Source: Ascidia mentula (taxonomy: Eukaryota; Chordata; Ascidiacea; Phlebobranchia; Ascidiidae). Taken from it: 64,000 bases of DNA. The DNA lies in NCBI GenBank assembly GCA_947561715.1, contig OX387201.1:4730001-4794000 (forward strand), in the 5' to 3' direction. Shown here piece after piece: positions 3,120 to 57,951 of the stretch. The first letter of the stretch is position 1, and the number at the start of each line of letters is the position of its first letter. Position numbers and translations under genes: made by a program. Below the pieces are notes generated by a model that worked only from the letters and a program-made list of their open reading frames with translations, had not been told where the DNA came from and searched no databases.

Positions 3120-4186
3120 CTTGTTTAACCGCTGCTGGTTGATCAGGTTCAGCCTTCTGCTGAACCTTATTTGCATCTTCGTTAAGTGGTAGCTGTCCTA
3201 ATACCCAAATAAACAAATTATACATGACTGACATATGTTATGCCTCTGTTTACCTTACAAAATGCAGTTGTTTTTTGCCAAATGTTTCTTGATTCCTTGC
3301 TTAGTGTATTTAACCGGTTTTCAAATATCTACATATATTCAGCGGTAGCTTGTATTTAATTACCGTAGTGTCACAGGCCACGCAAAATAAAGTACTGCAT
3401 ATTTTTTAGTTCCTTTTGGTCAATATAAATACTTTTTCCACAGATATGTGAATACAAAGAGCCATGATAGATTTGTAAGGTGATGAGGATAATAATTACA
3501 TACATAGGAGACGGGCAACATTGGTATTTCATCATGTTAGCTATATGCTTGGCAGGCACCTTTATTTCGAGCTGTTTACAATGAGTTGTATTACGGGCTT
3601 AGGCAAGTGTGGCGAAGTGTTTCGTTGTGAATATCATATTACAAGTAATCAACTCTAATCTTTCTTGTTTTTCTGATCATCTGGCTTACCTGATTGCTGT
3701 TGCCTTGATTGCTGTTGCCCTGATTGCTGTTGCCCTGATTGCTGTTGCCCTGATTGCTGTTGCCCTGATTGGTGCTGGCCTATAGAAATATAGGAAAGAA
3801 CAAGTTGTGTTTTGTCAAGGTAACAGGTAGCATATTTAAATCTATCTTCAATAACATTGTGTGCAACTCTCAAGCACAATTCGCTGATTTGTAAAGAGTA
3901 CAGCAGCATCATAATTTTTTATTAATTTTGATGAAATTTACAAACGTGAACTCTAGCCGATTGTTATAAATATAAGGAGAAACTTACCCTGATATACTGT
4001 CCCATTGTCACCAACGATTGCAGCGTTAACAGGGCTATGGAAGTTGTTCTTAGCGCCACCATATACGTCGCCAATGTGTTGTGCGTCACGTCTACCTGTT
4101 TTAGATTCGTCGATGTACATATCCCCCTTTGCGTTGTTTACCTTCACCTCGCCTTTGAAAGTGTTGTTAGTGAACGTAGTAGACAT
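3120..4186 (-). CDS. Tandem copy of the small motif gene, terminal exon missing
   Basis: Exons 4186-3988, 3779-3690 and 3197-3120 match the exons of the neighbour at 2659-1593 in length and phase. The protein differs by a few residues: H-I-G-D-V-Y in place of H-T-G-D-V-Y, and G-D-N-G-T-V-Y-Q in place of G-D-N-G-T-V-N-Q. The duplication breakpoint removes the tyrosine-tail exon, so the copy has no visible stop exon of its own. It could splice onward to the shared terminal exon at 1173-1121, end by read-through into intron 3, or be a dying duplicate. All retained splice sites are intact. Confidence 0.5.
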
Positions 4187-4263
4187 TGTGTGACAAATCA
4201 ATGTTCAAGCCGATCTAAGCTGTTGATCAAAATCACTTTCAACAAAAAATAAAAATAAAAGCA

Positions 4264-10887: not shown

Positions 10888-12634
10888 CTGTCTTCCTCCC
10901 CACTTTCATCATGTCTCTCCTGACCTGAATACCAAAATACATTAAAAGGAAACATTATTAAACGTACAAGAGTTTACGAGTTTTAAAATCACAAAAATGG
11001 GGCAGACGTTCGTTATTGTAACTCAAATGAGAGCTTCGCTGCGTTTTGCTTACGCCAACTGAACTTGGTCAGACCACAGCATAAAACCTATGGATGCTTG
11101 TTAGCCCACCTTTAGGTGTCGCAAAATCTTTTTTCTTTTGCGGGGCGGCGAAGGATGACCTGGGTTCAAATCCCAATTTGGTGAAAATAAAGTAAAAAAA
11201 CAAAAGTTTAAATTTCGTACTAACAAAAACAGCTGTTTTAAGGAACGTCTTTGGTCCCAAAATCTAAGCACTTATGGCGAGACACATGAGTAAACACAAT
11301 TTCACTGTGGGCAACTACAGGAACTGTTTTTGCCTCGAAGATGTGTGAAAACAACAGTGGCAGCTTTGTATTAACGATATTATTTTAACCCGACGCGATA
11401 ATGCTCGTACCTGTAGTGGGAGCTTGGTTCGAACTACTTTCAGAGACAGGGGTATTTTCAGGTTGACCACCATCGGTATTTTCTCCTACAAGAGTAAAGT
11501 ATGTGTTTTTTCTACTTCAGAGATAGCTATAAATCTGCATTAAAATTAATTGCTTTTAGGAAAAGGGGTATATTTTGAAAGTGAACACAGCCTGCTGATG
11601 AGTATCATCATATCAGGAGTCAATAAGCTACTACTTTGCATAAATATATCAATACATTAACTTTTTGACACATTAACTAGATCCATGTAAATACTGAGAC
11701 CAAACATCAATCGTCTTACTTATTTCATCTTCAGTTTCTTGCCTGTTTTTCTCGTCTTGTGGCTTTCGAGTGGTTGGTGGAACACCTGTTGTATAGAACC
11801 TATATTAGATACAACGGATTCAATAATGAAAATATAATGATAAACGATGGCCTCGTCCCCAATATTTTTGGCGTCGACAGTTGCATCAGTGAAATCGCAT
11901 TTTTTTCCTTTGTACTTGTCACCTACGTGCAGATGACCTACAACAACACAATTACAGAGCACAGCCTGCAGAAGATTTTTTCTACGTCTGCTGTTTCAAT
12001 ATGTAGGAAAACTGTAGGAAAATTTTTTACCTTTTTTATAGTACCAATTTTTTTTTACCTGTACTTGATCCAGCATCTGATTCTTGATTGCTTTTCGTGA
12101 CTCTTTTTCTCTCAGTCTCATCTACCTTCTCAGGTGCAGCTGCTTTTAGAACAAATATATGCATGGAGCTGTTTTTCAGAAAACGTCAGTTCATCGAAAC
12201 AATATACAACCCAATATTCAAGCAAGGATGTAAAAACGAAAGAGACTTTGCTAAAATTAATACAAACGGTAACACAGAAGTTGACCGTAGTCAGTTTTCA
12301 ACATGTACGTAAAAGTGGATTACCCTGATTCACAGTCCCATTATCACCAACGTTTGCAGTATGAACTGTTGCGCCAGAAAAATTATACTTTGGCCCACCG
12401 TATGAGTCACCAATGTGCTGTGGCTCTGAGTAAACACAGTTGAAATCAGCAGAAATGATTTTAACGTTTGCAGTGGAAATTATAACGATTTATTGAATTC
12501 TATTTTATTTGGTGGACAAGAGGTTCCATTCACCAGTAACACAAACCGCAAAACTATCACTTTTAAACACTTTGACTTACCAACGTTCACGTTCCCTTGC
12601 ATTCCCACAACCGACCTTCTACTGATATTCGCAC
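10888..12634 (-). CDS. Exon-cassette cluster, 5'-incomplete gene of the motif family
   Basis: A series of short exons on the minus strand: 12634-12581 (partial V-V-G-M-Q-G-N-V-N-V exon), 12425-12324 (motif exon, G-D-S-Y-G-G-P-K-Y-N-F ... N-V-G-D-N-G-T-V-N-Q), 12142-12059 (A-A-A-P-E-K-V-D-E-T, charged), 11937-about 11846 (diverged motif exon, H-L-H-V-G-D-K-Y ... N-I-G-D-E-A-I-V), 11785-11720 (V-P-P-T-T-R-K-P), 11485-11411 (E-N-T-D-G-G-Q, Ser/Glu-rich) and 10924-10888. Most are bounded by GT-AG and compatible in phase 1. I find no N-terminal exon and no certain stop: the donor of the diverged motif exon is unclear, and one joining would end at the stop near 11720. It may be a partial gene, or alternative exons belonging to a larger transcript. 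The same set occurs at 29820-31034 and in each unit of the array at 31-43 kb. Confidence 0.45.
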
Positions 12635-12842
12635 CTTGGTGGTATTGTGGAACTTTAAAACAAACCTTTTACGTATGTAAGGACAATAGTAATCCAATTA
12701 CAATCAAAGTAAACCGTAAAAGATTTCCTACTATTTTGGAGTTACCGCTGAAGTTTAAAGCATGGCGCCGGGAAATATATTTACTGTCATAGAACAACAT
12801 ATAAAACATGTATTAGTTTAAGTGCAACTTGTATTGTACGGT

Positions 12843-15569
12843 CTACTGGGCAAGAAACTCAAATAAGAACCACTTAAGGTATCTCAAATCTATAGCATTT
12901 AAATAATTTTTACCTATGATCTTTTGCTTTGTAAGTAAAATTGGTTCACTCAGGACCTCTGTTCTCCATTGTTCTGTTGTTAAAGTGACTGTGAGTTTTT
13001 TGTCAGCCAGGCTTTCGTTTCGTCGACTTGTAAGGAGACACATTTTTTCAATTTTTGATTTCCTCCAAACATCTTTGAATTTCTTCTCTCTTTCATCGAA
13101 ATCAATTTCATCGCTTGTCAAATTTCCGTGTAGATTTTGATCTGCACGTCTGAACAAAAAAATATGTCATCTCAAAAAATAACTTAAATGTCGCTTACTT
13201 GATTAAAAATGAAGTGTTGATAATTTCACTAAGCCTGATCTTGTCTCGTTGCAGTTGATCTCGAATCCTAATGGTGACAGAAAGTTTAGTTGGTTCTTCT
13301 GCTCCTCGAGGAGGAACAACAAAAGCGAATGACTTTTCTTTTTCCATTGCTAACCGGTCAGATGGTTCGGCTGTAACCTTGAATCTGTATAAAATATCTC
13401 ATTTCATAAATACCTTTATACTACGTCACTTTATTTGTTATACTTTGTGAAATGTTCGACTTCAAATTTAATCGAACTCTGTCCGCGTTCCATTGCGCCA
13501 TTTTGCAGTAGAGAAAAGTCAGCTTCTGCTTTTGCGCTTAAAATCTAAAAAATACATTAAATTTGTGATGCAGCTTGTTTACCACCTGGTATTTCTGGAC
13601 TTGGTGAACATTTCCTTAAAAACCTTTTTTTGATGTTTTTGGAAAAAAAATGAACAAAACCTTATATTAGACAGTTTTGTTGTTACGGCTTGACTTACAA
13701 ATGGTGTTTTTAACTTCCCAGGTTGCGTCCCTTTTAAAATATACAAACTCGTTCGTCCTTTTTTACCTCAATATCAACTTTCTTGTTTGTTCGGTAGCAG
13801 GTGGGAAGAGTAATTTCAACAGGCTCTTTAAAGTGCAACCCATCTGGTTTACACACTATTGTAGGTGCGAGGTCACCATCTTCATAGTATGTATCAACTT
13901 TAATTTCTACATCTTCATCTAAGGCGCCGGAAGGAATTGAAAGTTTGCAACCGTCAACATCAATTGTTCCTCCTTTGATTCCTATTTTCTTCGCAAGTGA
14001 TCTGTGACTCTGTAAGTGTTATGACACGTGACTAGTGCAATACAAGCTAACATGGCATGATAATTTGTTATTACTTTGGTATCATCGGTATTGCTTGTTC
14101 CATCTCTGATATGTTCTGATGTGCTTGATTCGTGTCTGAGATCTTTGTTCCGTTTGGGCTTCTGTCCTTGATCAGCTGCAGCTACGTAACAACAGCAAAT
14201 TTGTATATGTGTTTGTCCCGCAGGGAAACACAAGCTCGTTTTTAGAAATGCGATTAAGACTATGAGCTGTAAACTTCATTTGAAGTTGAATATTAAAACC
14301 CATTAAAGCATTTTTAGTATTTATTTCCTAATAAAGAAAACAACATAAAGTGGTCTAAAAATGTAGAAAATAAAAATATAATTTCTTACTGATTATAAAA
14401 GTGGTCACACTGCTTATATTTGAAGGCCAAAAATTGCCTCAAAAGTGTGTCTATATGCACCTTATTTGTACGGTTGTATATTAGTAGTGTTTTTACCTGC
14501 TTCAGAACCTTTTCTTTCAGCTGTCTGCAAAATCTTGCTGCGGAGTGGATAGCGTTGAGTAGGGATTGTCCCACCATGCACCTCTATATTTCGTGTTAAA
14601 TCACAAAGAAGCTGGCATGAATTATACAAAACTAAGAACGTTCAGCAAATTTTAATTAGACTTTTTAACCCACATCAGGTACACAGCTTCCCTACTTGCC
14701 TGCATTTTCTACGTTTCCCACAACACCAACCTTTTCGTATTTAATATTTTGGGGCCCTGTGAAATATCAATAAACTAAAACTTTATAATGTCAACGTCTT
14801 TATCAGCAAGGTTGTGTTTGACATAAATTATATTAGTTTGGCCTAGAGTGTAGAGTTGATTTGTGTGATTTTCTCATAATTATGCATGCAGCTGTTTCAA
14901 TGATACAGCAAATCCCATGAAAATTATTGAGAGAACGTAAGTTCATCGAAACAATATACAATCCAATATTCAAGCAAGGATAGAAAAACGGAAGAGATTT
15001 TGGTACAATTAACACAAAAAGTAACACAGTAGCCAGTTTTACATGTACGTGAAAGTGGATTACCCTGATTCATAGTCCCATGGTCACCAACGTTTGCAGC
15101 GTGAACTGTTGCACCAGGAAAATTATACTTTGACCTACCGTATGAGTCACCAAGGTGCAGTGGCCCTGTGTGCACAAAGTTGAAATCAGAAGAAATGGTT
15201 TTATGGTTTCACGTGGAAAATATAAAGTTCTGTTGCGTTCTACCTAACTTGGTGGTCAAGAGGTTCCATTTACTAGTAATAAAAACTGCCAAACGACCAC
15301 ATTTAAACCCTTTTACTCACCCATGTTCACGTTTCCTTGCACTCCCACAACCGACCCTCCACCGATATTCGCACCTTGCAAGTTCACATCTTGCAGCTTG
15401 CTATCCTTGTACACTGCACACAGAAATACCAATAAGTTTCTAAGGAATGGTTGGTTTGTACAGGTCGACTACCTTTCGTGGATTTGTGGATGTGCATATC
15501 TCCTTGTGCTTCGTTTATCTCATTGTTACCTTCAAAAATGCAGTTACTAAAATTGTTGTAGGCAAACAT
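12843..15569 (-). CDS. Motif-ZU5-UPA-like protein, 9 exons, 430 aa
   Basis: Exons 15569-15473, 15413-15321, 15165-15064, 14756-14700, 14181-14075, 14009-13767, 13544-13444, 13384-13199 and 13149-12843; phases match at every join and the 1293-nt frame closes on a stop. Residues 1-116 are beta-type repeats: N-N-F-S-N-C-I-F then A-Q-G-D-M-H-I-H; G-V-Q-G-N-V-N-M; Y-N-F-P-G-A-T-V ... N-V-G-D-H-G-T-M-N-Q; V-V-G-N-V-E-N-A. Residues 117-152 are a charged linker. Residues about 153-266 are a ZU5 domain (I-K-G-G-T-I-D-V ... I-P-S-G-A-L ... E-I-T-L-P-T-C-Y-R) ending in E-V-E-H-F-T. About 267-430 is a UPA-like region. ZU5-UPA occurs in PIDD1, UNC5, ankyrins and the NLRP1/CARD8 FIIND; here no death domain or CARD follows. 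The intron after exon 4 has a GC donor. Likely a cytosolic immune-type scaffold (inference). The gene starts about 230 bp beyond the stop of its upstream paralog. Confidence 0.75.
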
Positions 15570-15799
15570 GGTGCGAAGAAAACCTTACAGATCACCAAAT
15601 AAACGTTCAAAGCTAGTAGCGACCAATCAAACTTCCTCTAACTCAATATTTTACCATGTTAATGCGCTTTGTTTAACTTGAACAAACTGTAAGCAATAAC
15701 TGTAAGCAATAATATCAAATTAGGCAGGAATCTCAGAAACCATTGCCCACCTGTAGAACAATGTATACAACATGTATTAGTTTAAGTGCAACTTGTATT

Positions 15800-18700
15800 C
15801 TACGGTGTGCTGGATGAGAAACACAAATAATAAGCACGTGGGTATTTTAAATTTGTAGCGTGTAAAGAATTTTTACCTGTGATCTTTTGTTTTGTAAGAA
15901 AGACCGTTTTATTCAGGATCTCTGTTTTCTTTTGTTCTGATGATAAAGTGATGCTGAGTTTTCTGTCAACCAGGCTTTCTTTTTTTCGACTTCTTAGGAC
16001 ACACCTTCTTTGAATTAATGATTTATTCCAAACTTCGTTGAATTTCATCACTCTTCGATCGAAATCAATTTCATCGCTTGTTAAATTTAAGTGTAGATTT
16101 TGATCTGCATGTCTGAACAAAAAAATATGTAATCGCCAAAAATAACTCCCTATGTCGCTTACTGGACAAAAAATGAAGTGTTGATAATTTCACCAGGATC
16201 GCTCTTGTCTCCTGGTAGCTCATCGCAAATCGTAATGGTGGCGACAATTTCAGTTGGTTCTTCTGCTCCTCGAGAAACAACCAAAGCAAATGTTTTTTTT
16301 TTATTCATTATTGGCCGATCAGATAGTCCGGCTGTAATCTTGAATCTGTACAATAATTTCATTTTGAAATTACCGTTATACTATGACACTTTATTTGTTA
16401 TACTTAGTAAAATGTTCAACTTCAAATTTAAACAAACTTTGTCCGGGTTCCATTTCACTTTTTTTCAGCAGAGAAAAGTCAGTATTTGATTCTGCGGTCA
16501 AAATCTACAAAATACATTAAATTTGTGATGCAGCTTGTCAACCTACTATCTTTTCCAGACCTGTAACGGTGAACATTTCTTTAAAGACGTTTTTTGATGT
16601 TTGGAAAATTTGAAAGGATATTTTTTATATTAGAACATTACGTGAGATTCATTATTACAGTTTGACTTAAAACTAGTGTTTTTAACTTTCAAATGTGACA
16701 TCCCTAAAAAATATTCAAACTTTGTTCCTCATTACCTCAATATCAACTTTCTTGTGTGTTCGATAGCAGGTGGGAAGAGTCATTTCAACAGGCTTTTTAA
16801 AGTGCAACCCATCTGGTTTACACACTATTGTAGGTGTGAGGTCATCATCTTCATAGTATGTATCAACTTTTAACTTTACATCTTTATCTAAGGCGGCAGA
16901 AGGAATTGAAAGTTTGCAACCGCTAACATCAATTTTTCCTCCTCTGGGTCCTATTGTCGTCGTAATTGATCTGTACCTCTGTTTCTGTTGCCATAACACG
17001 TGGTCAGTGCTATGCAAGCTAACATGACATTATAATATCTTCTTACCAAGGTAACGCTCTTTTTTTTTCTTTGATCCAAATCTGATTTGCTTGATTTCTC
17101 TTTGGAAGCTTTGTTTCTCTGTTTGGCCTTTTGTCCGTGATCAGCTGCATCTATATAACAACAGCGACAAAATTTGTGTATGTGTTTGTTCTGAAAGGAA
17201 ACACAGGCCTGGTTTTGAAATGTAACTAAGACAATGAGCTGTAAATTCATTTGAAGTTGAAAGTACGAAAACGAAAACACTGCGAAATTAAGTCACGCCT
17301 AATTTCGAATACCATGCAGGATCACTCTGCAGCGTAGGCCTCACCCATGGTACGTTTTAACTAAGGACACTGGGCATTCAACCACTACTTTTCTGATAAA
17401 GCTATGGCATAAAAGTCACACTGGTGCGCAAGCCCAAAACTTTATACTATCTAATCACTGTATCCTAATAACGCAGGTATCAGAAAACGCAGAAAGTGCT
17501 TTCGTGTTGTAAGGCAGGTCGCCCAACTGAGAAGTGCGGGAAAAAACGAACGTTTTGTGAATTTGCTTCCGGTTTTCACAAGTATAATTTTAAATAGACG
17601 ATTTTATCATGTTGCAAAATTTTATTAAAATTTAATTAAAAATAAGCAAATGACTGCTTGTCAACCTCTTTGCAAACCGGTCATGACCAGCAGGACTCCA
17701 TACAAATCAGCCCGTTGCAACGCTTATTCGTTTCTCAAATCAAAGCCAAAGTACTTAGAAGAAAACTGTTTACACAATTCAGTTTTGTATAGACGGTAAT
17801 ATCGTGTTGCACAATGTGATTAAAATTCAACAAAAAAACAAGCAAATAACATCCTGTGAAAATCTATGCAAACCGGTCATGACCTGCGGGACCTTACACG
17901 ATCGGCGCCTCGAAACACCTATTTTTTTCGCAATGAAAAGCCAAAGCACTTTGAAGAAAACGGTTGACACAGTCCAATTTGAACCAAATCGTATTATCAT
18001 GTTGAAAAATTTTAATAATATTTAACTCAAAACAAACAAATCACAGCCTGTCAACCTGTTTGCGAACCAGCTACGACTAGGCGACTATTCGTTTTTCACT
18101 TAAAAGCAAAGGTCTTTAAAACAAAAACGGTTTGCACACTTCAATTTTAAGTAGATGTTACTATGATGTTGCAAAATTTAAAAAAATAAGTAAAACAAGC
18201 AAATGACAGCTTGTCAAGCTGTTGTGTACAAAACTGGAATCCATACGAAACGGCGCATCAAAACACCTATTCGTTTTACGATTTTAAGCCAAGCAACTAA
18301 GAAAACTGATCTATTTTTAATAGACGCAAGGATTATGCTTCAAAAGTTAAGGTTAAAACAAACAAATGTTAGCCTTTCAACATATTTTTGGACGAAATAT
18401 ATATTTGTTTCATAGAATATGAAAGCTTGAAATATACGTTTCCATGACTAGTAAGTCATAGCTTGAGAAAAACTGCCGCCCACATTATAATGACCACTGT
18501 TAACACAACCATAATATAATGTCCAAAGAGAATGAAAATATACATGCACGTCTTTGAATTCATATCCAATGTAGCCACCTAGCAAGTCATATATTCAACC
18601 CCTCCTTGCTTCCAATGTTGGTGAAACATTTATTTTTGTTATGTTGGATCGTGCAGAGATAAAACTGCACAAATCAATTCGAGGAAGTCATATCTCCTCA

Positions 18701-19703
18701 ATGACGTCACACTTCACACGACCACATTTCAATTTATAACAACTTACCTTTCTGGTGCTTAAAGCAAACGTTGCAACTCATTAAGTATCATTGTATACCT
18801 CGCACTAACAACAAACACGAAACAGTAAAAGTTACTACTGGACCGCTATCTACATAATAACTACGTAGCTTACTGACGATTGCCCGATGAAGTTGGAAAC
18901 GAAACCAACCATTAATAAAGTTGCCACCATTTTCCAACAAACTTTACAATGTCAACGTCTTTACCAGCAACGTGGTGTTTGACATAAATTATATTAGTTT
19001 GGCCTAGAGTGTGGAGTTGATTTGTGTGATGTTTCCACAATTGTGCATGCAGCTGTTTAAATGATACAGCAAATTCCGTGAAAATTATTGTGAGAACGTC
19101 AGTTCATCGAAACAATATACAATCCAATATTCAAGTAATGGTGAAAAAACAGAAGAAATTTTGGTAAAATTAACACAGAAGTTGACCTTAGCCAGTTTTA
19201 CATGTACGTAAAAGTGGATTACCCTGATTCACAGTTCCGTGTTCACCAACGTTTGCAGCGTTAACTGTTGCACCAGAAAAATTATATTGTGATCCACCGC
19301 ACGAGTCACCAATGTGCTGTGGCCCTGAGTAAACAAAGTTGCAATCAGAAAAAATGATATCATCGTTTGCGGAGGGAAATAGAACGTTTTATTTCGTCCC
19401 ATTTACCAGTGATACAAACTGCAAAACTATCGCATTCAAACTCTTTAACTCACCCATGTAAACGTCCCCTTGCGCTTCCACGTCTGTTCCTTCACTGATT
19501 TTCGAACCTTCCAAGTTCACTTGTTGCACCTTGCTATCCTTGTATACTGAACACAAGTATTTGCAATAAGTTTCTAAGAAATAGTTGGTTTGTACAGGTT
19601 GACTACCTTTTGTGGATTTGTCGATGTGCATATCTCCTTGTGCTTCGGTTATCTCAGTCTTCCCGTTAAAATTGCAGTTACTGAAACTGTTGTGGACAGA
19701 CAT
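15800..19703 (-). CDS. Motif-ZU5-UPA-like protein, 8 exons, 411 aa
   Basis: Exons 19703-19607, 19546-19454, 19324-19223, 17150-17047, 16978-16736, 16504-16404, 16345-16163 and 16112-15800; 1236 nt, phases consistent, stop present. N-terminus: N-S-F-S-N-C-N-F then A-Q-G-D-M-H-I-D; A-Q-G-D-V-Y-M; Y-N-F-S-G-A-T-V ... N-V-G-E-H-G-T-V-N-Q. Residues about 98-132 are a Lys/Ser-rich linker. ZU5 spans about 133-246 (P-R-G-G-K-I-D-V ... V-E-M-T-L-P-T-C-Y-R) and ends in V-E-H-F-T; the UPA-like region follows (F-A-L-V-V-S-R-G-A-E-E-P-T). The V-V-G-N-V-E-N-A exon of its paralog is absent: its expected place near 18.94 kb is replaced by foreign sequence, but phase 1 is preserved across the gap, making a 2.07 kb intron. 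A CRE-like word lies 231 bp upstream of the ATG. Head-to-tail with the paralog at 15569. Confidence 0.7.
17600..18370. repeat. Diverged tandem repeat, about four units of 170-195 bp
   Basis: Units starting near 17606, 17801, 17996 and 18161 share a leading 'at(c/g)(a/g)tgttg(c/a)aaaattt', a central 'aacaagcaaatgacagcttgtcaa'-like part and an 'aaagccaaag' part. They lie in the large intron of the 411-aa gene. Short open frames inside are chance. Confidence 0.6.
18371..18945. other. Inserted sequence in the large intron
   Basis: The family-typical sequence breaks off at about 18943, where paralogous loci continue into the V-V-G-N-V-E-N-A exon. The inserted side ends with 'gcccgatgaagttggaaacgaaac', a word of the kind found near ends of some non-LTR or Penelope-like elements. 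I cannot classify it. Confidence 0.35.
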
Positions 19704-24117: not shown

Positions 24118-24541
24118 CTGCATTTTCAACGTTTCCCACAACACCAACCTTTTCGTATTTAATATTTTGGGGTCCTGCGGAATATAAATAAACTTAAACT
24201 TTATAATGTCAACGTCTTTGCCTGCAAGGTTGTGTTTGACTTAAATGTATTAGGTTGGCCTAGAGTGTAGAGTTGATTTGTGTGATTTTTTCACAATTGT
24301 ACATCAACTGTTTAATTGATACAGCAGATCCAAAGGAAATTATTGAGAGAACGTCAGTTCATCGAAACAATATACAATCCAATATTAAAAAAACTTGACC
24401 GTAGCCAATTTTACATGAACGTAAAATTGGATTACCCTGATTTACAGTCCCATGGTCACCAACGTTTGCAGCGTGAACTGTTGCACCAGAAAAATTATAC
24501 TTTGACCCACCGTATGAGTCACCAGTGCATGTGTTGTGGCC
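24118..24541 (-). pseudogene. Isolated motif exons, one frameshifted
   Basis: 24541-24436 is a motif exon (G-D-S-Y-G-G-S-K-Y-N-F-S-G ... N-V-G-D-H-G-T-V-N-Q) with a 4-nt gain near its start relative to its paralogs, so the frame from the acceptor is broken. 24174-24118 is an intact V-V-G-N-V-E-N-A exon with the family GC donor. No start exon or ZU5 exon is next to them; the LINE lies immediately upstream in gene direction. Confidence 0.55.
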
Positions 24542-24664
24542 CTGAGTAAACAAATTTGAAATTAGCAAAAATGTTTTCGTTGTTTCCAGTGGGAAATATA
24601 AAGTTTCGTTTCTTTTTTTAACTTTGTGGTCAAAAGGTTACAAGGTTACAAAGCTACGGTTTTC

Positions 24665-26200
24665 GATGTAAGGTGTTTCATTTCTTCAAAAACTACCTAC
24701 AGGGCCGCAGTCAATATACCACAATAAACTCGGAGCAATCCACATTAAAAGACGTATTATATGGAATTCCTCAAGACAGCATCCTGGGGCCATTGCTTTT
24801 CATTATTTACATAAATGAAATACCGGACGTCACCTCCATGCACTCAACCATATTCGCTGATGACACCTGTCTTTGGTTATCAAACTCAGACCCAGCAAAA
24901 TTAAGCCAAGAAGCTAATTTACAAATGAACCGCATACACCAATGGCTTTGTGCTAATAAATTATCATTAAACTGTAAAAAAACAAATTTCATAATTTTCA
25001 CAAAAAACAAGAATTACAACTGGTCAACTGTTCAGGTGCTTGTAAATGGGAGTCCTCTCACACAAATATCCAATGTGCAGTATCTTGGTATAACTATAGA
25101 TAATAATCTAACATGGCAAAATCATACAACAAAAGTTGCAAAAAAGTTGGCACAGTCTGCAGGAGCTATGCTAAGCTGAAAAATTATGTAAATAAATCAA
25201 CGCTTCGTGCAGTTTATTTCACTTTAGTTCATCCTCATTTGCTTTACGGACTGTTAATTTGGGGTTTTGCACCCTCCACATACTTACAACCAGTTTTATC
25301 CCAACAAAACAGAATCATAAAAATAATGCCAAACAGCCCTTACAGGGCACATCATGGGCCCTTGTTTCATCAACTCAAAATATTGCCTCTTAAAAAAATG
25401 CACATCTTACAAATCTCTATGTTTGCCTTTAAATATTTCAACCATACCTTGCCGTCAGTTTTTAAAGACAAATATTTGCGTATCAAACAAGTCCATCACC
25501 ACAACACACGTTCCGCCACAACAACAGCTCTACACCTCCCCAGTGTGCGCACAACCACCTGTCAAAAATCATTAAATTATTTCTCAGTTATTGTTTGGAA
25601 TCACCTACCAGAACAAATTAAAAAGTACAGCTTACATAGTTTTAAAAGAGGGGTTATTTCATTGTTGGCCAAGGATGCCTTTGTTATACAACCTCATTTC
25701 CTGTAATTTCCACGTGGTCTTGTTCAACTTGTTTTTGTTTTGATTACGAAATTCATGCTTTAGGGACTATTTACTGTGTTTACTTCATTATTGCCTTATT
25801 GTACTTGTTGCCTCCAACCCTACTTTACATCAACTGCTAATTATTTGATTATACTGGATAAGAAAATTACTTTCGCTTCAGGCTGTATTTTAAACTGATG
25901 ATTTCTTTTTCGCAAAGTGAGTTTTCACAACGATTCGCCAATGCAATTATTTGTGCTTTTTTTTTTTCAAAATTACTTTGCTTTATTCAGCAATTATGAT
26001 GCTTTCTTTATTTTTTTGCAATTATTTCTTGTACTTTTTTTCTGTGCCTCATTTTGGAATTATTGTGTTTGTTTTCTTTTGAAACTAGCGTAATGTCTGC
26101 TTCCTGGAAATCAGTGGTACTGGTGGTTGATAAAGGATTTTTGTGTCCTATAGCCAGCATCACCCGCTGTACACAAAATATGCACATTACTTTATTTTAT
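24665..26200 (+). mobile_element. 5'-truncated non-LTR retrotransposon (LINE), reverse transcriptase fragment
   Basis: The frame 24673-25179 holds reverse transcriptase blocks G-I-P-Q-D-S-I-L-G-P-L-L-F, then F-A-D-D-T (the Y/F-A-D-D active site), N-K-L-S-L-N-C-K-K-T and Y-L-G-I-T-I-D. The frame 25113-25706 carries the C-terminal part (H-P-H-L-L-Y-G-L-L-I-W-G). The two parts are out of frame with each other near 25170, so a single-base change separates them. Domains 5' of the palm are missing. The arrangement suits the CR1/L2/Jockey group; I do not assign the clade. The 3' limit (about 26200) is taken from where the segmental duplication begins. Confidence 0.8.
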
Positions 26201-43350: not shown

Positions 43351-43950
43351 GTTTTTTCTACTTCAGAGACATTGGTATAATAGAACAAAATTATGCATGC
43401 AGCTGTTTTTCAGAAAACGTCAGTTCATCGAAACAATATTCAACCTGATATTCAAGGATGTAAAAACGGAAGAGATTTTGCTAAAATTAATACAAACAGT
43501 AACACAGAAGTTGACCGTAGCCTGTTTTCAACATGTACGTAAAGGTGGATTACCCTGATTCACAGTCCCATGATCACCAACGTTTGCAGCGTGAACTGTT
43601 GCACCAGGAAAATTATACTTTGATCCACCATATGAGTCACCAATGTCCTGTGGCCCTGAGTATACAAAGTTGAAATCAGCAGAAATGTTTTTATGGTTTT
43701 CAGTGGAAAATTTAACGATTTATTGAATTCTATTTGATTTGGTGGAAAAGAGGTTACCAGTAACACAAACTGCAAAACTATCACATTTAAACCCTTTGAC
43801 TTATCGACGTTCACGTCCCCTTGCACTCCCACAGCCTACTGATATTCGCACCTTGGTGGTATTGTGGAACTTTGTGGAAATGTTCATATATATTACCCTC
43901 GTGTAACTAGACGAGCTCAGAGGTTTTGAGGGATAATGACCACGAAGTTA
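43351..43950 (-). pseudogene. Motif exon with decayed neighbour
   Basis: 43655-43554 is an intact 102-nt motif exon (G-P-Q-D-I-G-D-S-Y-G-G-S-K-Y-N-F-P-G ... N-V-G-D-H-G-T-V-N-Q). The G-V-Q-G-D-V-N-V exon at about 43800-43855 has lost its donor (cgataag where others have ggtaag). The pair lies directly downstream of the ZU5 gene ending at 44069. Confidence 0.5.
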
Positions 43951-44068: not shown

Positions 44069-46696
44069 TTAAACAGTTGTTTTAGTACTGCCCACTTGCA
44101 GCACAAATATTTTTTTACCGTTTTCAATAACAACCATACCAGCGTATTTAAAATTCCTAGAAAGCAATAGAATCTTACGTAGACTTTGTTTTTTTATGTA
44201 GAAATCCTTGTTCACAAGTTCTTTGAATTTTTTCTTCGATGCTATTTGAATTTTCATTTTTTTATTTGCCAAACTCTTTCCGTTTTTACTTGTTAAGCGG
44301 AATTGGCTTTCGTCTCTTGCTATGGCCCAAATTTTAGTTATCTCTTTTTCACCTTCATCTATACTTACTTCATCACTTGTCAGTTTTGCAAAAAGATTTT
44401 GATCTGAACGTCTAATAAGTGGTAACAAACAAAGCACATGAATTTTTTGCTCAAGTAATAAACTGATATTACTTACTCAATCCGAAAGTATGTGCGCAGA
44501 ATTTCATTGAGTTCATTCAATGTTTTTGCCAATGGGGGGTCACAAATTAACATGGAGGCAATGATTGTTGTTGGCTCATCCGCGGCAGGTGGAACAGTAA
44601 AAATGAGAGACTTTTGCTTTTTTACTGGCTTGGCATTTGTAATAGAAATCCTAAAACTTTAAGAAAACATTTTACTTATTCGACAAGGTTTCCTGCTGTG
44701 CAAAAAATAACTTATTCCTTACTTTGAAAAGTGTTTGGTAACAAATGTAAAAGTTTTGGAATTTTGTTTCAAATAAATATCACTGACTTTGACAAAGTCT
44801 GAAGTTTCATCGGGTGCATTTTGTACCTAGACAACAAAAGTACATCTGACAAAGATAACTGGCATAAATAAAAGTGCAATAGACTGGCAAACTTCGTTAC
44901 CTCCATACATATGTCTTCCTCTGATCGGTAAAAGGTGGGCAGAGTGATTTTAACTTCCTTCTCAAAAGTTAGTCCATGTGGCTTGCAGATTAGAGTAGGT
45001 GATACATCATTGTCATCGTAGCAGGCGTCCACTTCAATTTCAACGTCCGGATGCAAGGCATCAGGAGGAATCAAAATTGTACATCCCCCAATGTCGATAT
45101 CTCCACCCTTTTTTCCAATTACTTTTGCGGTATGTTGACGGAATAAGTATTTCTAAAACAGTTTATTTTGTGTAATTCTTGTTCCGGCTTTTGTTCTTAA
45201 TTGGTTTCCTGTTGTTTTGACAATCGGAGACTGATGATTACTACACGTAAAGCAAGCTGATGCTCCCAGCGCAATTACTTTCATCGTGACAAAAAATGGA
45301 TTCAGTACATATTTAAAGCAAACGTCAGCGCAAATTGGTTTTCCTGTGTCAAACTTTTATGAGAAATTACAAAAAAAACTTCAGCAACAAACCTTTTCTG
45401 GAGAGTTTTCATCTAAACCAATCTCAGGATTTTCCGTTTTGACTTTTTGGTTTGAATTTTCACATGTTTGTTCCATTGCTTCGTTCCAGTCAGTCATAGT
45501 AACATTTCCAATCACATCCCACATGGAATCTTTCATAATCGCACCTTGAGCGTTTGTCACGTGCTTTTGTGTAACTGGGCGGGAATAAATATATATATAA
45601 TATATATAACAATTGTAAAGATCGTTTTGTTTTCCTTACGAAAGATTGATGCCACCTGTATGCAATGTTTTTTAATTTTAGAAATAGTTTATCTTAGTAT
45701 ATATTTCGTGTTAAATCACAAAGAGGCTGACATGGATTATACAAAACTAAGAACATTTAGCAAATTTTAATTGGACTTTTTAACCCAATCAGGTACACAG
45801 CTTGCCTACTTGCCTGCATTTTCAACGTTTCCCACAACACCAACCTTTTCGTATTTAATATTTTGTGGCCCTGTGAAATATAAATAAACTTAAACTTGAT
45901 AATGTCAACGTTTTTATCAGCAAGGTTGTGTTTGGCATAAATTATATTAGTTTGGCCTAGAGTGTAGAGTTGATTTGTGTAATTTTCTCATAATTATGCA
46001 TGTAGCTGTTTAAATGATACAGCAACTCCCATGAAAATTATTGAGAAAACGTAAGTTCATCAAAACAATATACAATACAATATTCAAGCAAGGATAGAAA
46101 AACGGAAGAGATTTTGGTACAATTAACACAAAAAGTAACACAGAAGTTGACCGTAGCCAGTTTTACATGTACGTGAAAGTGGATTGCCCTGATTCACAGT
46201 CCCATGGTCACCAACGTTTGCAGCTTGAACTGTTGTACCAGAAAAATTATACTTCGGTACAGATGCTGGATTACCAAGTAACAGCCCGGGAAGTTGCCCG
46301 ATAAACAAAACATAAGCAGTCCAAAGCAAATTAATTTTTATTGCATTTTACTAGAGACTTCACACTCCATTGGTATTGCGGAGGCTAAATATAGATATAC
46401 CAATTGTAACACACTTTGATGTCAAACATTACTTCAGCAAATAGGTTGCATGGACGATTAATGAACACGTCGTAATAGCACTCAATTTAAAATGTGGTCA
46501 GTTGCATTGGGAGCAATCAATTTCGTGTTGGTTGGAACATGAAAGCTACAAATCATATCCTTTTGGATGATCACAACATTGGCAAAGTTGTATCTACCTT
46601 CTGCAGGACCCACATTGCCCATGATTGCTGTCGTTGAGTTTATGATGGTTGCACCTTCAAAGTAGTCGTTTTTCTGTATTTTCGACGCACTGTGAA
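44069..46696 (-). CDS. Motif-ZU5-UPA-like protein with HFS site, 5' end not found
   Basis: Exons 46696-46598, 46265-46188, 45870-45814, 45574-45393, 45152-44901, 44826-44723, 44650-44477 and 44411-44069; phases agree throughout and the frame ends on a stop. The first listed exon carries a distinct repeat, Y-F-E-G-A-T-I-I-N-S-T-T-A-I-M-G-N-V-G. The second has the usual motif (K-Y-N-F-S-G-T-T-V-Q ... N-V-G-D-H-G-T-V-N-Q) with a new acceptor and a GC donor; the third is the V-V-G-N-V-E-N-A exon. The fourth is a long acidic linker. ZU5: K-K-G-G-D-I-D-I-G-G-C ... V-K-I-T-L-P-T, ending T-K-H-F-S. The UPA-like region includes I-L-R-T-Y-F-R-I and the final exon D-Q-N-L-F-A-K-L-T-S-D-E. H-F-S is the self-cleavage motif of FIIND/PIDD ZU5 domains. 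A start exon is not visible, so the 5' end is open. Confidence 0.65.
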
Positions 46697-46799
46697 CTGA
46701 AACAACATCATGTTTAACACCTTCATCATCGCACATTGAGCGTTTGTCACGTGCTTTTGTGTAACTGGGCGGGATGCTAAATATATATATAATATGTAT

Positions 46800-49150
46800 A
46801 ACAATTGTTATGATGGTTTTGTTTTCCTTACGAAAGATTGATGCCACCTGTATGCAATTTTTTTTAATTTTAGAAATAGTTTATCTTAGTACACATTTCG
46901 TGTTAAATCACAAAGAAGCTGGCATGGATTATACAAAACTAAGAACATTTAGCAAATTTTAATTACATTTTTTAACCCACATCAGGTACACAGCTTGCCT
47001 ACGTTTCCCACAACACCAAATTTATATCGTATTTAATATTTTGGGGCCCTGTGAAATATAAATAAACTTAAACTTGATAATGTCAACGTTTTTATCAGCA
47101 AGGTTGTGTTTGGCATAAATTGTATTAGTTTGGCCTAGATTGTAGAGTTGATTTGTGTAATTTTCTCATAATTATGCATGTAGCTGTTTAAATGATACAG
47201 CAACTCCCATGAAAATTATTGAGAAAACGTAAGTTCATCAAAACAATATGCAATCCAATATTCAGGCAAGGATAGAAAAATGGAAGAGATTTTGGTGAAA
47301 TTAACACAAAAATTAACACAGAAGTTGACCGTAGCCAGTTTTACATGTACGTGAAAGTGGATTACCCTACAACAACACAATTACAGAGCACAGCCTGCAG
47401 AAGATTTTTCTACGTCTGCTGTTTCAATTCCACTGTAGAAGAAATTTTTACGTTTTTTATAGTACCATTTTTTTTTACCTGTACCTGATCCAGCACCTGA
47501 TTCCTGATTGCTTTTCCTCTCAGTCTTATTTACTTTCTCAGCTGCAGCTGCTGTTTGTGTAAAGTGTTTTTAGCCATTGTATGACATTGATTAGGGTAAC
47601 TACTTACGACGTTTTGCAGGTTTTGAACTATTTGATCTGTTTTGTTGACCTTTTAACCGCTCGTTTCGAGAACCTGAAGAAATGTACAAAACTTTGAATA
47701 GATTTTTTGGACATTGGTACCATAAAACATAATTATGCATGCAGCTGTTTTAAATGATACAGAAGATCCAATGAAAATTGTCCAGAAAACATCAGTTCAT
47801 CGAAACGTCGTAGTATTTACACAAATTAAACGTTTGTTACTGCAAATCAAATGAGAGCTTCGCTGCGTTTCGCTTTCGCCAACTGCAATTGGTCTGACCA
47901 CAGCATAAAACCTGCGGATGCTTGTTAGCCCAACGCTAGGTGTCGCAAAATTATTTTTCCTTTGCAGGGCGGCGAAGGATAACCTGGGTTCAAACCGCGG
48001 TGAGGTAAAAAACAAGTAAAAAAAAACAAGTAAAGAAACGGGATTAAAGAAAACCTGATCGGGATTCGTGTCCAGGATATCCTGGGTTCGAATCCCGATG
48101 CGGTATGAAAAGTTTTGTTACATTTTTTGGTCCGAGAAGCCTGCTGCTGTTTGTGCAAAGTGATTTTTGCGATTGTATGACTTTAATTAGGGCAACTACT
48201 TACGACGATTTGCAGGTTTTGAACTATTTGATCTGTTTTGTTGATCTTTTAACCGCTCGTTTCGAGAACCTGAAGAAATGTATAAACTTCAAATAGATAT
48301 TTTTGGACATTGGTACCATAAAACATAATTATGCATACAGCTGTTTTAAGGAATGACTTTGGTCCCAAAATCTAAGCACTTATGGCGAGACATGAGTAAA
48401 CGTAATTCCACTGTGGGCAACTACAGGAACTGTTTTTGCTTCGAAGATGTGTGAAAACAACAGTGGCAGCTTTATATTAACAATATTATTATAACCCGAC
48501 GCGATAATGCTCGTACCTGTAGTGGGAGCTTGTTCCGAACTACTCTCAGAGACAGAGGTTTTTTCAGTTTGATCACCGTCTGTATTTTCTCCTGTAAGTG
48601 TAAAGTAAGTGTTTTTTCTACTTCAGAGACATTGGTACAATAGAACAAAATTATGCATGCAGCTGTTTTTCAGAAAACGTCAGTTCATCGAAACAATATA
48701 CAGTCTAATATTCAAGGATGTAAAAACGGAAGAGATTTTGCTAAAATTAATACAAACAGTAACACAGAAGTTGACCGTAGCCAGTTTTCAACATGTACGT
48801 AAAAGTGGATTACCCTGATTCACAGTCCCATGGTCACCAACGTTTGCAGTGTGAGCTGTTGCGCCAGAAAAGTTATATTTTTGGCCACCGTATGAGTCAC
48901 CAAAGTGCTGTGCTGTGGAGTATACAAAGTTGAAATCAGCAGAAATGTTTTTATGGTTTTCAGTGGAAAATTTAACGATTTATTGAATTCTATTTCATTT
49001 GTTGGACAAGAGGTTCCATTTACCAGTAACACAAACCGCAAAACTATCACATTTAAACTCTTTGACTTATCGACTTTTACGTTCCCTTGCACTCTTGACC
49101 ACGAAGTTATCAAACCTAATGATTTTATTTCAAAAAACATTTGTAAATGA
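46800..49150 (-). pseudogene. Cassette exons between the two ZU5 genes
   Basis: Includes an intact motif exon at 48912-48814 (A-Q-H-F-G-D-S-Y-G-G-Q-K-Y-N-F-S-G-A-T-A), a G-V/L-Q-G-N-V-K-V remnant near 49090, an E-N-T-D-G-D-Q-T-E-K exon near 48590-48515, G-S-R-N-E-R-L-K exons near 48270-48205 and 47670-47605, the A-A-A-E-K-V-N-K-T charged exon near 47555-47480, and a truncated V-V-G-N-V exon near 47010-47055. No start exon is present. They could be 5' exons of the 44069-46696 gene or relics of another copy. Confidence 0.45.
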
Positions 49151-49176: not shown

Positions 49177-51683
49177 TCAAAACTTAAGTTTGTTGTGATT
49201 AACTTCACATTTGTGTAAAACCATCATGGCTTGAACAGGTGTTTCAGCACTGCCCACTAGCAACACAAGTATTTTTTTACCGTTTTCAATAACAACCATA
49301 CGAACGTATTTAAAATTCCTAGAAAGCAATTGAATCTTACGTAGACTTTGTTTTTTTATGTAGAAATGCTTGTTCACAAGTTCTTCGAATTTTTTCTTCG
49401 ATGCTGTTTGAATTTTCATTTTTTTATCTGCCAAACTCTTTCCGTTTTGGCTTGTTAAGCGGAATTGGCTTTCGTGTCTTGCTATGGCCCAAACTTCAGT
49501 TATCTCTTTTTCACCTTCATCTATACTTACTTCATCACTTGTCAGTTTTGCAAGATGATTTTGATCTAAATGTCTAATAAGTAGCAACAAACAAAGCACA
49601 TGTATTTTTTGCTCAAGTAATAAACTGATATTACTCACTCAATCTGAAAGTTTGTGTGCAGAATTTCATTGAGTTTATTCAATGTTTTTGCCAATGGAGT
49701 GTCGTCACAAATTAACATGGAGGCAATGATTTTTGTTGGTTCACCCGCGTCAGGTGGAACAGCAAAAATGAGAGACTTTTCCTTTTTTCCTGGCGTGACA
49801 TTTGTAATAGAAATCCTAAACCTTTAAGAAAACATTTTACTTATTCGACAAGGTTTCCTGCTGTGCAAAAAATAACTTATTCCTTACAGAGAAAAGTGTT
49901 TGGTAACAAATGTAAACGTTTCGGTGTTTTGTTTCAAATAAATATCACTGACTTTGACAAAGTCTGAAGTTTCATCTGGTGCATTTTGTACCTAGACAAC
50001 AAAAGTACATCTGACAAAGATAACTGGTTTAAATAAAAGTGCAATAGACTGGCAAACTTCGTTACCTCCATAGATATATCTTCCTCTGATCGGTAACAGG
50101 TGGGCAGAGTGATTTTAACTTCCTTCTCAAAAGTTAGTCCATGTGGTTTGCAGATTAAAGTAGGTGATACATCATTGTTATGGTAGCAGGCGTCCACTTC
50201 AATTTCAACGTCCGTATGCAAGGCATCAGGAGGAATCGAAATTGTACATCCCCCAATGTCGATATCTCCACCCTTTTTTCCAATTAATTTTGCGATGTGT
50301 TGACGGAATAAGTATTTCTAAAACAGTTTATTTCGTGTAATTCTTGTTGCAGTATCTGTTAATAATTGTTTTTTTGTTGTTTCGACTATCTAAGACTAAT
50401 GATTAGTACGCGTTAAGAGAGTTAATGTTTCCAGCGCAATTGCTTTTATCCTCATAAAAAATGGATTCAGTACATGTTTAATACAAAAGTCCGCGCAAAT
50501 TGGTCCCCCAGTGTCAAACTTTTATGAGAAATTATGCGAAAAACTTCAGCAACAAACCTTTTCTGTAAGGTTTTCATTTAAACAAATCTCAGGATCTTCC
50601 GTTTTGGATTCTTGATTTGAATTTGCACATCTACTGATGGTTGCACTTTGAGCTTTTATCACTTGCTTTTGTGCAACTGGGCGGGATGCTAAATATAGAT
50701 ATACCAATTATAACACACTTTTATGTTAAACTTTACGTCACCAAATTGGTTGCACGGATAATCAATGAACACGTTTTTATAGTATTTACTTTAAAATTTA
50801 GTCAGTTGTTTTGTAGTCAAACTTTAGAACTGTTTGATCAGCAAATAATGTATTACAAAATAGAATCGAGAGTCTCCATTAAATCCTAAATCCTCACAAT
50901 CATCGAAACATAAACATCTGTCAATAAACACAAGTGTTATTCCTAAGGAGAATTATCTTACCGGGTGAAACGTTCCTGTCCTGCAAGTGTTGACTGGTGG
51001 TGCCCACTATAATGTTGATGTTCTTCTTGGTAGTATTAACATTTGGTTTTCCGCTGTAGCGAACACAACGTATATTAATATGAAACATGTATTATTGACA
51101 TTGTTTATATTCGTGACCTGTTTCCGACGTACAAAAGGACAAACCCAAACGCGGTGCAATACTAACTACAGACCTTTAAACAACCACCGCCCTGGCTCTA
51201 AAACAATAAAGGACTCTAAAATGCGTAACCTGTTGGTCCGCCCTGACATGCTTAGCGGGCAGATGTGACTTGTGTTCATGCTTTATATGGGCCTTATTGA
51301 ATTGCATCAGTATTCCATTTTACATGTGGTTTCATTTGGACTGCTGCCGTACGTTTCCGCCATCTTATTAAAAGATTGTTTACCTGATTGGTGTCGGACA
51401 TACGGAGTCTATGGAAGAACACGCGATAAACTCAACATCGCCAATTTCACAATCGCCAAATAAGACTTTAGCAGACGGTTCCTTTTCCATTTCAAGTTCT
51501 GCATGAAATTAATCTTAAACAACTGCAGTTTTGTCAACTGTAACCAGAGTAATGCAAAAAAACAAACAAGCCCGATAAATATATCCAGATTCAAGTTACC
51601 TGTTTCTTGTTGATTTGAATGCAATGAAGCGTTTTTTGGCCTTTTTTTGGATTGCGGTTGTTTAACGCTTCGAGCAGTATCAC
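49177..51683 (-). CDS. ZU5-UPA-like protein with HFS site, 5' end not found
   Basis: Exons 51683-51600, 51498-51384, 51053-50962, 50676-50558, 50317-50066, 49991-49888, 49815-49639 and 49573-49177; phases 1-1, 1-2, 2-1, 1-0, 0-0, 0-2, 2-2 and 2-stop fit together. The N-terminal part differs from the paralogs: a basic linker (K-Q-P-Q-S-K-K-R-P-K), then L-F-G-D-C-E-I-G-D-V-E-F-I, then N-I-N-I-I-V-G-T-T-S-Q-H-L-Q, which again alternates hydrophobic residues around a V-G. ZU5: K-K-G-G-D-I-D-I-G-G-C ... V-K-I-T-L-P-T-C-Y-R, ending V-T-K-H-F-S. UPA-like: K-S-L-I-F-A-V-P-P and D-Q-N-H-L-A-K-L-T-S-D-E-V. The C-terminal tail is longer than in the 44069 paralog, through a shifted stop. No start exon found; the family's exon 1 is not seen upstream before 53.6 kb. 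Confidence 0.6.
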
Positions 51684-57767: not shown

Positions 57768-57951
57768 TTTGCGGAGCAAATATGTGCCTGTTTTATGTAT
57801 GAAATTTCTTACTTAACGTCTACCAAAAATCAAAAACGAACGACGTTACTTTGCACGTACATTCTATTGCGTTCAGTGTTGTTGTGCTTTTGTTCCGCTT
57901 AACGAATTTCTTTCAATTGGCATTTCGGCTGCAATTCACCGCACAAAAATC

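What the first reader, a model, noticed from the sequence alone, without database searches (positions are those of the whole stretch)
12843..19703. Gene family joining RHIM/amyloid-like repeats to ZU5-UPA
Seen: two complete, phase-consistent genes whose N-terminal third consists of short beta-type repeats with a G-A-T-V ... N-V-G-D-H-G-T-V-N-Q core, followed by ZU5 and a UPA-like region; two more incomplete paralogs occur at 44-51.7 kb. Known: ZU5-UPA regulates PIDD1, UNC5CL and NLRP1/CARD8, and RHIM-type cores (V-Q-V-G-D-N-N in RIPK3) nucleate signalling amyloids. Inference: an assembly motif takes the place that LRR, NACHT or death-fold modules hold in those proteins, which would be an undescribed inflammasome-like design.
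Basis: partly seen in the sequence, partly recalled or inferred. Interest (0 to 1): 0.92.

Follow-up and report, generated by a model that had tools for sequence, protein, structure and literature searches.

The report
Sea-squirt ZU5 genes with beta-motif heads
A sea-squirt genome holds a fast-changing cluster of genes that join short glycine-rich beta-type motifs to a ZU5-type regulatory module with a possible self-cutting site, which may be an undescribed immune-sensor design; the claimed link to human RHIM motifs was not confirmed.

Summary
On the minus strand are two complete gene models, A (15569-12755) and B (19703-15659), each of nine exons; a third copy (E) lies outside the window. All 24 introns of the three hand-built models are GT-AG with identical phases. 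Between copies the frames stay open although exons diverge about as fast as introns (dN/dS about 1). ZU5 is confirmed by Pfam. UPA is inferred from position only; sequence and fold tests gave nothing.

The host is a tunicate (mitochondrial AGR read as Gly). It ends in HF-T (A, B, E) or HF-S (C, D, F), resembling the HF/S autoproteolysis site published for PIDD. A ZU5 search with paralog D finds 129 exon-level matches genome-wide; in three of six other loci fetched, LRR or GBP-GTPase exons lie upstream of ZU5. No Death or CARD match lies within 50 kb of a ZU5 match.

RHIM membership is not supported: no Pfam match, no V/I-Q-V/I-G tetrad. Amyloid behaviour is untested.

Best reading: a tunicate innate-sensor family in which a lineage-specific beta-motif head, perhaps self-assembling, is regulated by a FIIND-like module. 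If cleavage occurs, the motif stays on the N-terminal fragment, unlike the CARD of NLRP1/CARD8.

The parts
19607..19703 (-). Gene B exon e1: start codon and first beta motif
   Evidence: many, not all, e1-like copies begin with Met at this place
19454..19546 (-). Gene B exon e2: second motif
19223..19324 (-). Gene B exon e3: GDSxGGSxYNFSGATVxAANVGEHGTVNQ motif
17047..17144 (-). Gene B linker exon, basic and polar
16736..16984 (-). Gene B ZU5 exon
   Evidence: Pfam PF00791 E 2e-8; profile of 8 paralogs matches ZO-1 ZU5 in PDB at E 6e-7
16404..16504 (-). Gene B junction exon ending EVEHFT, at the place of the HF/S autoproteolysis site
   Evidence: PMC3210808 passages
16163..16345 (-). Gene B UPA-like exon 1
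   Evidence: UPA by position only
15877..16112 (-). Gene B UPA-like exon 2
   Evidence: UPA by position only (searches gave no support)
15659..15750 (-). Gene B last exon, hydrophobic tail LPNLILLLTVIAYSLFK and stop
15473..15569 (-). Gene A exon e1
15321..15413 (-). Gene A exon e2
15064..15165 (-). Gene A exon e3
14075..14175 (-). Gene A linker exon
13767..14009 (-). Gene A ZU5 exon
   Evidence: Pfam PF00791 E 2.9e-8
13444..13544 (-). Gene A junction exon ending EVEHFT
13199..13384 (-). Gene A UPA-like exon 1
12914..13149 (-). Gene A UPA-like exon 2
12755..12783 (-). Gene A short last exon (VNIFPGAML, stop)
46598..46736 (-). Paralog C first motif exon (C-type motif)
46186..46284 (-). Paralog C e3-type exon region; donor reads GC instead of GT
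44901..45152 (-). Paralog C ZU5 exon
   Evidence: Pfam ZU5 E 1.1e-4, 22.8 bits (cut-off 21) in a hand-joined draft protein
44723..44826 (-). Paralog C junction exon ending KHFS
44180..44656 (-). Paralog C two UPA-like exons (44656-44477, 44411-44180)
50066..50317 (-). Paralog D ZU5 exon
49888..49991 (-). Paralog D junction exon ending KHFS
49342..49821 (-). Paralog D two UPA-like exons (49821-49639, 49573-49342)
12322..12638 (-). Orphan e2/e3-type motif exons just 3' of gene A
43552..43832 (-). Orphan e2/e3-type motif exons just 3' of paralog C; e2 part has a stop
48812..48934 (-). Orphan e3-type motif exon just 3' of paralog D

Best explanation
This is a rapidly diversifying tunicate family of cytosolic innate-sensor or adaptor proteins. 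Each protein has an N-terminal head of three short glycine-rich beta motifs (one per exon), a basic linker, a ZU5 domain, a FIIND/PIDD-like junction with F-[S/T], and a UPA-like region with a short tail and no death fold. Most likely mechanism: the ZU5-UPA-like module holds the protein inactive and probably cuts itself at the F-[S/T] bond, the halves staying together. A trigger releases the N-terminal half, whose motif heads then stack with each other and with the motif-only proteins of the same cluster. Shown: exon structure at the DNA level, ZU5, F-[S/T] at the junction of most genes examined, frame constraint with fast divergence, cluster and paralog layout. Inferred: transcripts, UPA fold, autoproteolysis, self-assembly, immune role.
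For: Three nine-exon copies with the same order and phases. ZU5 by Pfam and by PDB profile search. The rank-1 Foldseek match of the ZU5 model is ankyrin-B ZU5-ZU5-UPA-DD, though only at E 0.64, probability 0.60. F-[ST] at the junction in 12 of 14 ZU5 genes, where PIDD has HF/S and where Ser, Thr or Cys can be the nucleophile (PMC3210808 passages). Open frames kept with dN/dS about 1. 129 exon-level ZU5 matches, with LRR or GBP exons upstream in three of six loci fetched. 34 of 37 e3 matches lie in one 180-kb cluster, all on one strand. Motif-only open frames in the same cluster.
Against: No RHIM or other known assembly family is recognised in the head. UPA is unconfirmed. Pfam's own ZU5 model finds only 5 exon-level matches in the genome, 2 of them in this cluster, so the size of the expansion rests on the single-protein search, whose weakest matches are near E 0.01. 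No effector sharing the motif was found; the motif genes on C1:4.406 Mb and C70:6.727 Mb were looked over by eye only. No transcripts. dN/dS near 1 could also mean relaxed constraint. The predicted cut leaves the motif on the half that NLRP1/CARD8 degrade. A and B have Thr, not Ser, at the site, and the activating His was not mapped. In two of the 14 genes (L024, first copy in L025) no F-[ST] was found; in L020 and L022 the site was picked by eye among several pattern hits.
Confidence: 0.38

Rival explanations
1. The N-terminal motifs fold into a small stable beta-solenoid that binds a ligand or partner, like the LRR or GBP part of other ZU5 genes; they are a sensor head, not an assembly motif.
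For: In three of six other loci the place upstream of ZU5 holds LRR or GBP exons. Sub-threshold Pfam resemblance includes beta-helix families (Pentapeptide E 0.073, Fil_haemagg_2 E 0.089, both in A). e1-e3 diverge with dN/dS 0.58, 1.49 and 0.76, as a recognition surface might.
Against: Those Pfam matches are below cut-off and differ between copies (B's best is an unrelated DUF at E 0.021). Each protein carries only three short motifs, few for a stable solenoid. No structure was predicted for the head.
Confidence: 0.3
2. The cluster is mostly decaying tandem duplicates; A, B and E are recently duplicated and under little constraint, with no special function of the combination.
For: dN/dS about 1. 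Many orphan motif exons lack ZU5, some with stops or lost donors. Last exons differ between copies. Tandem repeats are abundant.
Against: 0 stops in three pairwise comparisons where 4.8-7.0 are expected; homologous exon lengths differ only by multiples of three. All eight splice junctions are kept in all three copies. ZU5 is the least diverged exon in each pair (0.90-0.95 identity).
Confidence: 0.2
3. Motif exons and ZU5 exons belong to neighbouring separate genes that happen to alternate in the cluster.
For: Most motif exons lie without ZU5. Some motif-only frames stop inside e3 (C69:4806907 and 4675785). The e3-to-linker intron is long (888-2078 nt). In B and E the open frame upstream of the linker holds an in-frame ATG.
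Against: e3 leaves in phase 1 and the linker enters in phase 1 in all three copies, and the order recurs in A, B and E. In A the open frame upstream of the linker has no Met.
Confidence: 0.1

Closest known systems
PIDD1 (LRR, ZU5s, UPA, DD; autoproteolysis at HF/S; from PMC3210808 passages)
   Same: ZU5 module followed by a junction with HF-[ST]; related genes in the same genome carry LRR exons before ZU5
   Different: One ZU5 seen, motif head instead of LRR in A, B and E, no death domain; cleavage untested
NLRP1 / CARD8 FIIND
   Same: ZU5-like part, F-[ST] type site, UPA-like part in the same order
   Different: No NACHT or CARD; predicted cut leaves the putative assembly part on the N-terminal fragment; UPA unconfirmed
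RHIM and related amyloid signalling motifs (RIPK1/3, fungal PP, bacterial BASS 3)
   Same: Short beta-type motif with G-D/N core used as a module (resemblance by eye)
   Different: No Pfam RHIM match, no V/I-Q-V/I-G tetrad, no shared-motif effector found; amyloid not tested
TRADD-N proteins fused to FIIND / UPA-ZU5 (PMC8195603, passages seen)
   Same: Metazoan proteins joining a non-LRR adaptor to ZU5-UPA, predicted there to autoproteolyse
   Different: No TRADD-N match in the Pfam scans; whether Pfam holds that model was not checked

Membership tests
ZU5 domain (Pfam PF00791) | match above the curated cut-off | tested here: met
   34.8 and 34.3 bits against cut-off 21; hand-joined drafts B 28.7, A 33.1, C 22.8, L023 22.6 bits
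ZU5-UPA / FIIND module | UPA domain after ZU5 | tested here: inconclusive
   No Pfam UPA match (the controls were silent too); PDB profile search of the region found nothing; model of UPA2 alone has pLDDT 40
ZU5-UPA / FIIND module | F-S (or Thr/Cys) cleavage site at the end of ZU5 | tested here: met
   HF-T in A, B, E; HF-S in C, D, F; F-[ST] in 12 of 14 genes
ZU5-UPA / FIIND module | actual autoproteolysis | not testable with these tools
   needs expressed protein
RHIM | Pfam RHIM profile match | tested here: not met
RHIM | V/I-Q-V/I-G core tetrad | tested here: not met
   absent from the whole proteins of A, B and E; definition from PMC12119088 passages
RHIM / amyloid signalling motif | forms cross-beta fibres; shared by receptor and effector | not testable with these tools
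   no effector sharing the motif recognised (the last two by eye)
PIDD1-like / inflammasome sensor | death-fold domain (DD or CARD) | tested here: not met
   0 of 20 Death and 0 of 3 CARD matches lie within 50 kb of a ZU5 match; the nearest is 51 kb away; an exon-by-exon search can miss split domains
NLR | NACHT domain | tested here: not met
   no NACHT in Pfam scans of the pieces of A and B; genome not searched for NACHT

The most novel reading that the evidence does not exclude
Tunicates evolved a signalling system in which a home-grown beta-motif replaces death folds as the polymerising part of FIIND-type sensors. Many loci supply interchangeable sensors (LRR, GBP GTPase, helical-looking repeats) on a self-cutting ZU5-UPA-like core, and the cluster on contig C69 supplies motif-headed members plus motif-only proteins that act as partners or decoys.
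Probability: 0.15. Interest if true: 0.88.

Novelty: new variant of a known kind. Interest (0 to 1): 0.55.

Why it matters
FIIND-type autoproteolytic sensors are known to me mainly from vertebrates (recall). A tunicate (sister group of vertebrates) with a ZU5 expansion joined to LRR, GBP or a new motif head, and without nearby death folds, would suggest that the ZU5-UPA core is a general release device on which lineages hang different sensors and outputs. It gives a defined set of proteins in which autoproteolysis and self-assembly can be tested separately. RIPK1 homologs with kinase, RHIM tetrad and DD are reported as not found in tunicates (PMC12119088, passage), so a separate assembly motif there would be informative.

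Tried and rejected
RHIM membership: rejected (Pfam and tetrad tests). Death-fold or CARD partner: none near. Known beta-helix family: only sub-threshold Pfam matches. Prokaryotic relatives of the N-terminus: none by tblastn among 174 pattern matches. NCBIfam and PADLOC: nothing. PDB: no relative of the N-terminus (two chance-level hits to a sperm-tail protein). UPA: the fold of exon UPA2 alone was useless. I considered that the e2/e3-type exons 3' of the UPA-like exons are C-terminal exons of the same genes. In A and E a short last exon with a stop lies before them and the acceptor of A's e2-like fragment is poor, so I treat them as separate or remnant units. On C1 the motif exon 3' of UPA enters in the right phase but also has its own in-frame ATG after a stop, so C-terminal exon versus separate small gene stays open. 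Relation among motif classes: first tested with some hand-typed rows, then repeated with letters taken from the DNA against 5800 shuffles, which is what I cite. e3-type against 11.9-type 0 of 5800 both ways; C-type against e2 best 1, median 5; e2 profile against C-type best 3, median 5; e2 profile against e1 best 0 but median 329; e3 profile against e2 best 9, median 130; e2 profile against e3 best 442, median 1069. The copies tested were chosen by me.
Full report
OBSERVATION. On the minus strand, gene B runs from the ATG at 19703 to a stop at 15659 and gene A from 15569 to 12755. Each model has nine exons: e1, e2, e3 (motifs), linker, ZU5, a junction exon, two UPA-like exons and a short last exon. 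A third copy, E, with the same nine exons, lies outside the window at C69:4712417-4709453. Entry phases are the same in all three (0,1,1,1,0,0,2,2,1), and 24 of 24 introns are GT-AG. Sites were picked by hand, so GT-AG alone proves little; the shared order, phases and exon lengths do more. Proteins are 395, 416 and 397 aa.

CONSTRAINT. Between copies, exons are 64-95% identical and the introns that could be aligned 66-93% (the long e3-to-linker intron was not aligned for A/B and B/E). dN/dS over exons 1-8 is 0.95, 1.03 and 1.09 for A/B, A/E and B/E. By part, in the same order: head 0.58, 1.49, 0.76; ZU5 plus junction 0.90, 0.83, 0.84; UPA-like 1.46, 1.19, 1.44; linker 1.10, 0.37, 2.56 (few sites). 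Yet there are no stops, where drift without constraint would give 6.6, 4.8 and 7.0 on average (0 stops in 2, 36 and 3 of 5000 runs), and homologous exons 1-8 differ in length only by multiples of three. The three pairs are not independent and the models were chosen open, so this is support, not proof. Fast change under a kept frame fits recognition or immune genes, but relaxed constraint also fits.

DOMAINS. ZU5: Pfam 34.8 and 34.3 bits, cut-off 21. A profile of eight paralogs finds ZO-1 ZU5 in the PDB at E 6e-7, over the ZU5 part only. The AlphaFold model of the ZU5 exon (pLDDT 69) has ankyrin-B ZU5-ZU5-UPA-DD as its rank-1 Foldseek match, but only at E 0.64, probability 0.60. UPA is not confirmed: no Pfam match (the controls were silent everywhere), no PDB profile match, and the model of one UPA exon is worthless (pLDDT 40). 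I keep the name 'UPA-like' for position only. The head has no match above cut-off in Pfam, NCBIfam or PADLOC and none beyond chance in PDB.

JUNCTION. The exon between ZU5 and UPA-like ends EVEHFT in A, B and E and KHFS in C, D and F. In paralogs elsewhere it reads HFTW (L020), HFSW (L025, second copy), EFSW (L021, L023, L028) or KFSW (L022). That is F-[ST] in 12 of 14 genes examined; in L024 and the first L025 copy I did not find it. For L020, L022 and L025 I chose the site by eye from nine pattern hits. The paper on CARD8 and NLRP1 (PMC3210808, passages read) gives HF/S for PIDD right after ZU5 and SF/S for CARD8/NLRP1, and lists Ser, Thr or Cys as nucleophiles of such reactions. Cleavage here is plausible but untested, and the activating His was not mapped.

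HOST AND CLUSTER. The window is G000:C69:4730001-4794000 of a 195.8-Mb genome. Its mitochondrial COX1 has 16 AGA/AGG codons, several at stretches where I recall COX1 to have glycine (such as MIGGFGNW, LPGFG, FTVGMD; translation). That is the ascidian code, so the host is a tunicate. An e3-type query has 37 matches in the genome at E<=1: 34 at C69:4.644-4.821 Mb, all on the minus strand, two at C1:4.406 Mb and one weak at C69:3.58 Mb (counts are lower bounds). Most motif exons have no ZU5 beside them. Two near-identical motif-only frames (C69:4806907 and 4675785) stop inside e3. Other motif genes lie at C70:6.727 Mb and next to ZU5 genes at C1:3.27 and 3.40 Mb. There the motif exon follows the UPA-like part and ends in a hydrophobic stretch and stop (clear in L028), but it also has its own in-frame ATG, so it may be a C-terminal exon or a separate small gene.

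ZU5 EXPANSION. A ZU5 query from D has 129 exon-level matches at E<=0.01 (150 of 174 candidates scored): 6 in this cluster (A-F) and 123 on C1, C2, C52, C67, C70 and C71. Pfam's own model finds only 5 at E<=0.001: B, E, two exons of a ZO-1-like gene (my reading) and one at C69:3.08 Mb; so the expansion rests on family-internal similarity, supported by LRR/GBP-linked copies and by Pfam ZU5 scores just above cut-off for C and L023. Of six other loci fetched around such matches (L020-L025), two have LRR exons before ZU5 (L020 LRR_6 9.5e-21; L025 2.6e-8), one has GBP GTPase exons (L024 PF02263 4.7e-27), and one has repeated helical-looking exons with no Pfam match above cut-off (L023). L021 and L022 were not resolved. 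These are co-linear exons, not proven transcripts. Death (20 matches) and CARD (3 matches) never lie within 50 kb of a ZU5 match; the nearest is 51 kb away on C71.

RHIM AND AMYLOID. The resemblance to RHIM is a lead only. Pfam RHIM matches nothing here, and the V/I-Q-V/I-G tetrad (PMC12119088, passages) is absent from A, B and E; the closest I noticed is VQAG in the 8.9-kb exon. The same paper reports no RIPK1 homologs (kinase, RHIM tetrad and DD) in tunicates. Motif classes, with letters from the DNA against 5800 shuffles: e3 and the 11.9-kb type are clearly related (0 of 5800 both ways), e2 and the C-type motif are related (best 1-3, median 5), e1 to e2 holds for the best copy only (0, median 329), e3 to e2 is borderline one way (best 9, median 130) and absent the other way (best 442). 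So 'repeats' is fair within classes and unproven across them.

MECHANISM. Shown: layout, ZU5, F-[ST] in most genes examined, fast divergence with open frames, ZU5 relatives with LRR/GBP exons upstream. Inferred: transcripts, UPA, self-cleavage, motif stacking, immune role. One point against a simple NLRP1-like reading: after cleavage the motif head sits with ZU5 on the N-terminal half, not with UPA. Either the head is the sensor (rival 1), or the N-terminal half is the active one.

LITERATURE. Two papers in the library hold both RHIM and ZU5 (listing). Listings of other searches (25 of 3,307 papers, 15 of 333, 10 of 28) showed no paper that joins ZU5 with amyloid and tunicates; the unlisted ones were not seen. 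PMC8195603 (passages) reports metazoan TRADD-N proteins fused to FIIND and UPA-ZU5, the nearest published design I met. PMC12261475 was seen in passages. The library is open-access only, so absence in print is not established.

CHANGES AT CHECKING. Confidence in the best explanation went from 0.40 to 0.38 and in the separate-genes rival from 0.08 to 0.10, because B and E have an in-frame ATG upstream of the linker and Pfam's own ZU5 model finds few copies.

Noticed in passing
L024 (C52:21197001-21207000): GBP-type GTPase exons (PF02263 E 4.7e-27) lie co-linear upstream of a ZU5 gene; a GBP-ZU5 fusion would be a striking sensor.
   Followed up: partly
L020 (C70:2419001-2429000), L025 (C71:17543001-17553000): LRR exons upstream of ZU5, PIDD1-like, but with no Death match within 50 kb.
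   Followed up: partly
L028 (C1:3271501-3274500): Open frame MCKTGEET...GNVNIIYANSGYLMFCVAFFLFLFYILALVHYA: an e2-like motif followed by a hydrophobic tail, 3' of a ZU5 gene.
   Followed up: partly
L027 (C70:6726001-6736000): A gene with about five motif-like exons (by eye) on another chromosome, no effector recognised by eye.
   Followed up: no
C69:4806920-4806410 (L016) and 4675800-4675290 (L009): Two near-identical motif-only frames (e1-e2-e3, stop inside e3), possible decoy or adaptor proteins.
   Followed up: partly
window 30200-42500: Four copies of a unit of about 3.03 kb, each with an e3-type exon (FTDATVDAKNIGDEAIVYH type) and 288-290-nt subrepeats.
   Followed up: no
window 55100-60250: Tandem units of 1.8 kb carrying e1-type motif exons.
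   Followed up: no
window 2130-4250: Two copies of a unit of about 1.53 kb with e1 and e3-type exons and a 15-nt tandem repeat whose minus-strand frame reads QQQSG.
   Followed up: no
window 24622-25703: Reverse-transcriptase-like frames (by recall, not searched) beside a motif exon at 24434-24560.
   Followed up: no
window 62514-63563: 350-aa open frame that looks like a HARBI1-type transposase (by recall; not searched against a library).
   Followed up: no
window 15659-15750: Gene B alone of A, B and E ends in a hydrophobic stretch that could be a membrane tail anchor.
   Followed up: partly
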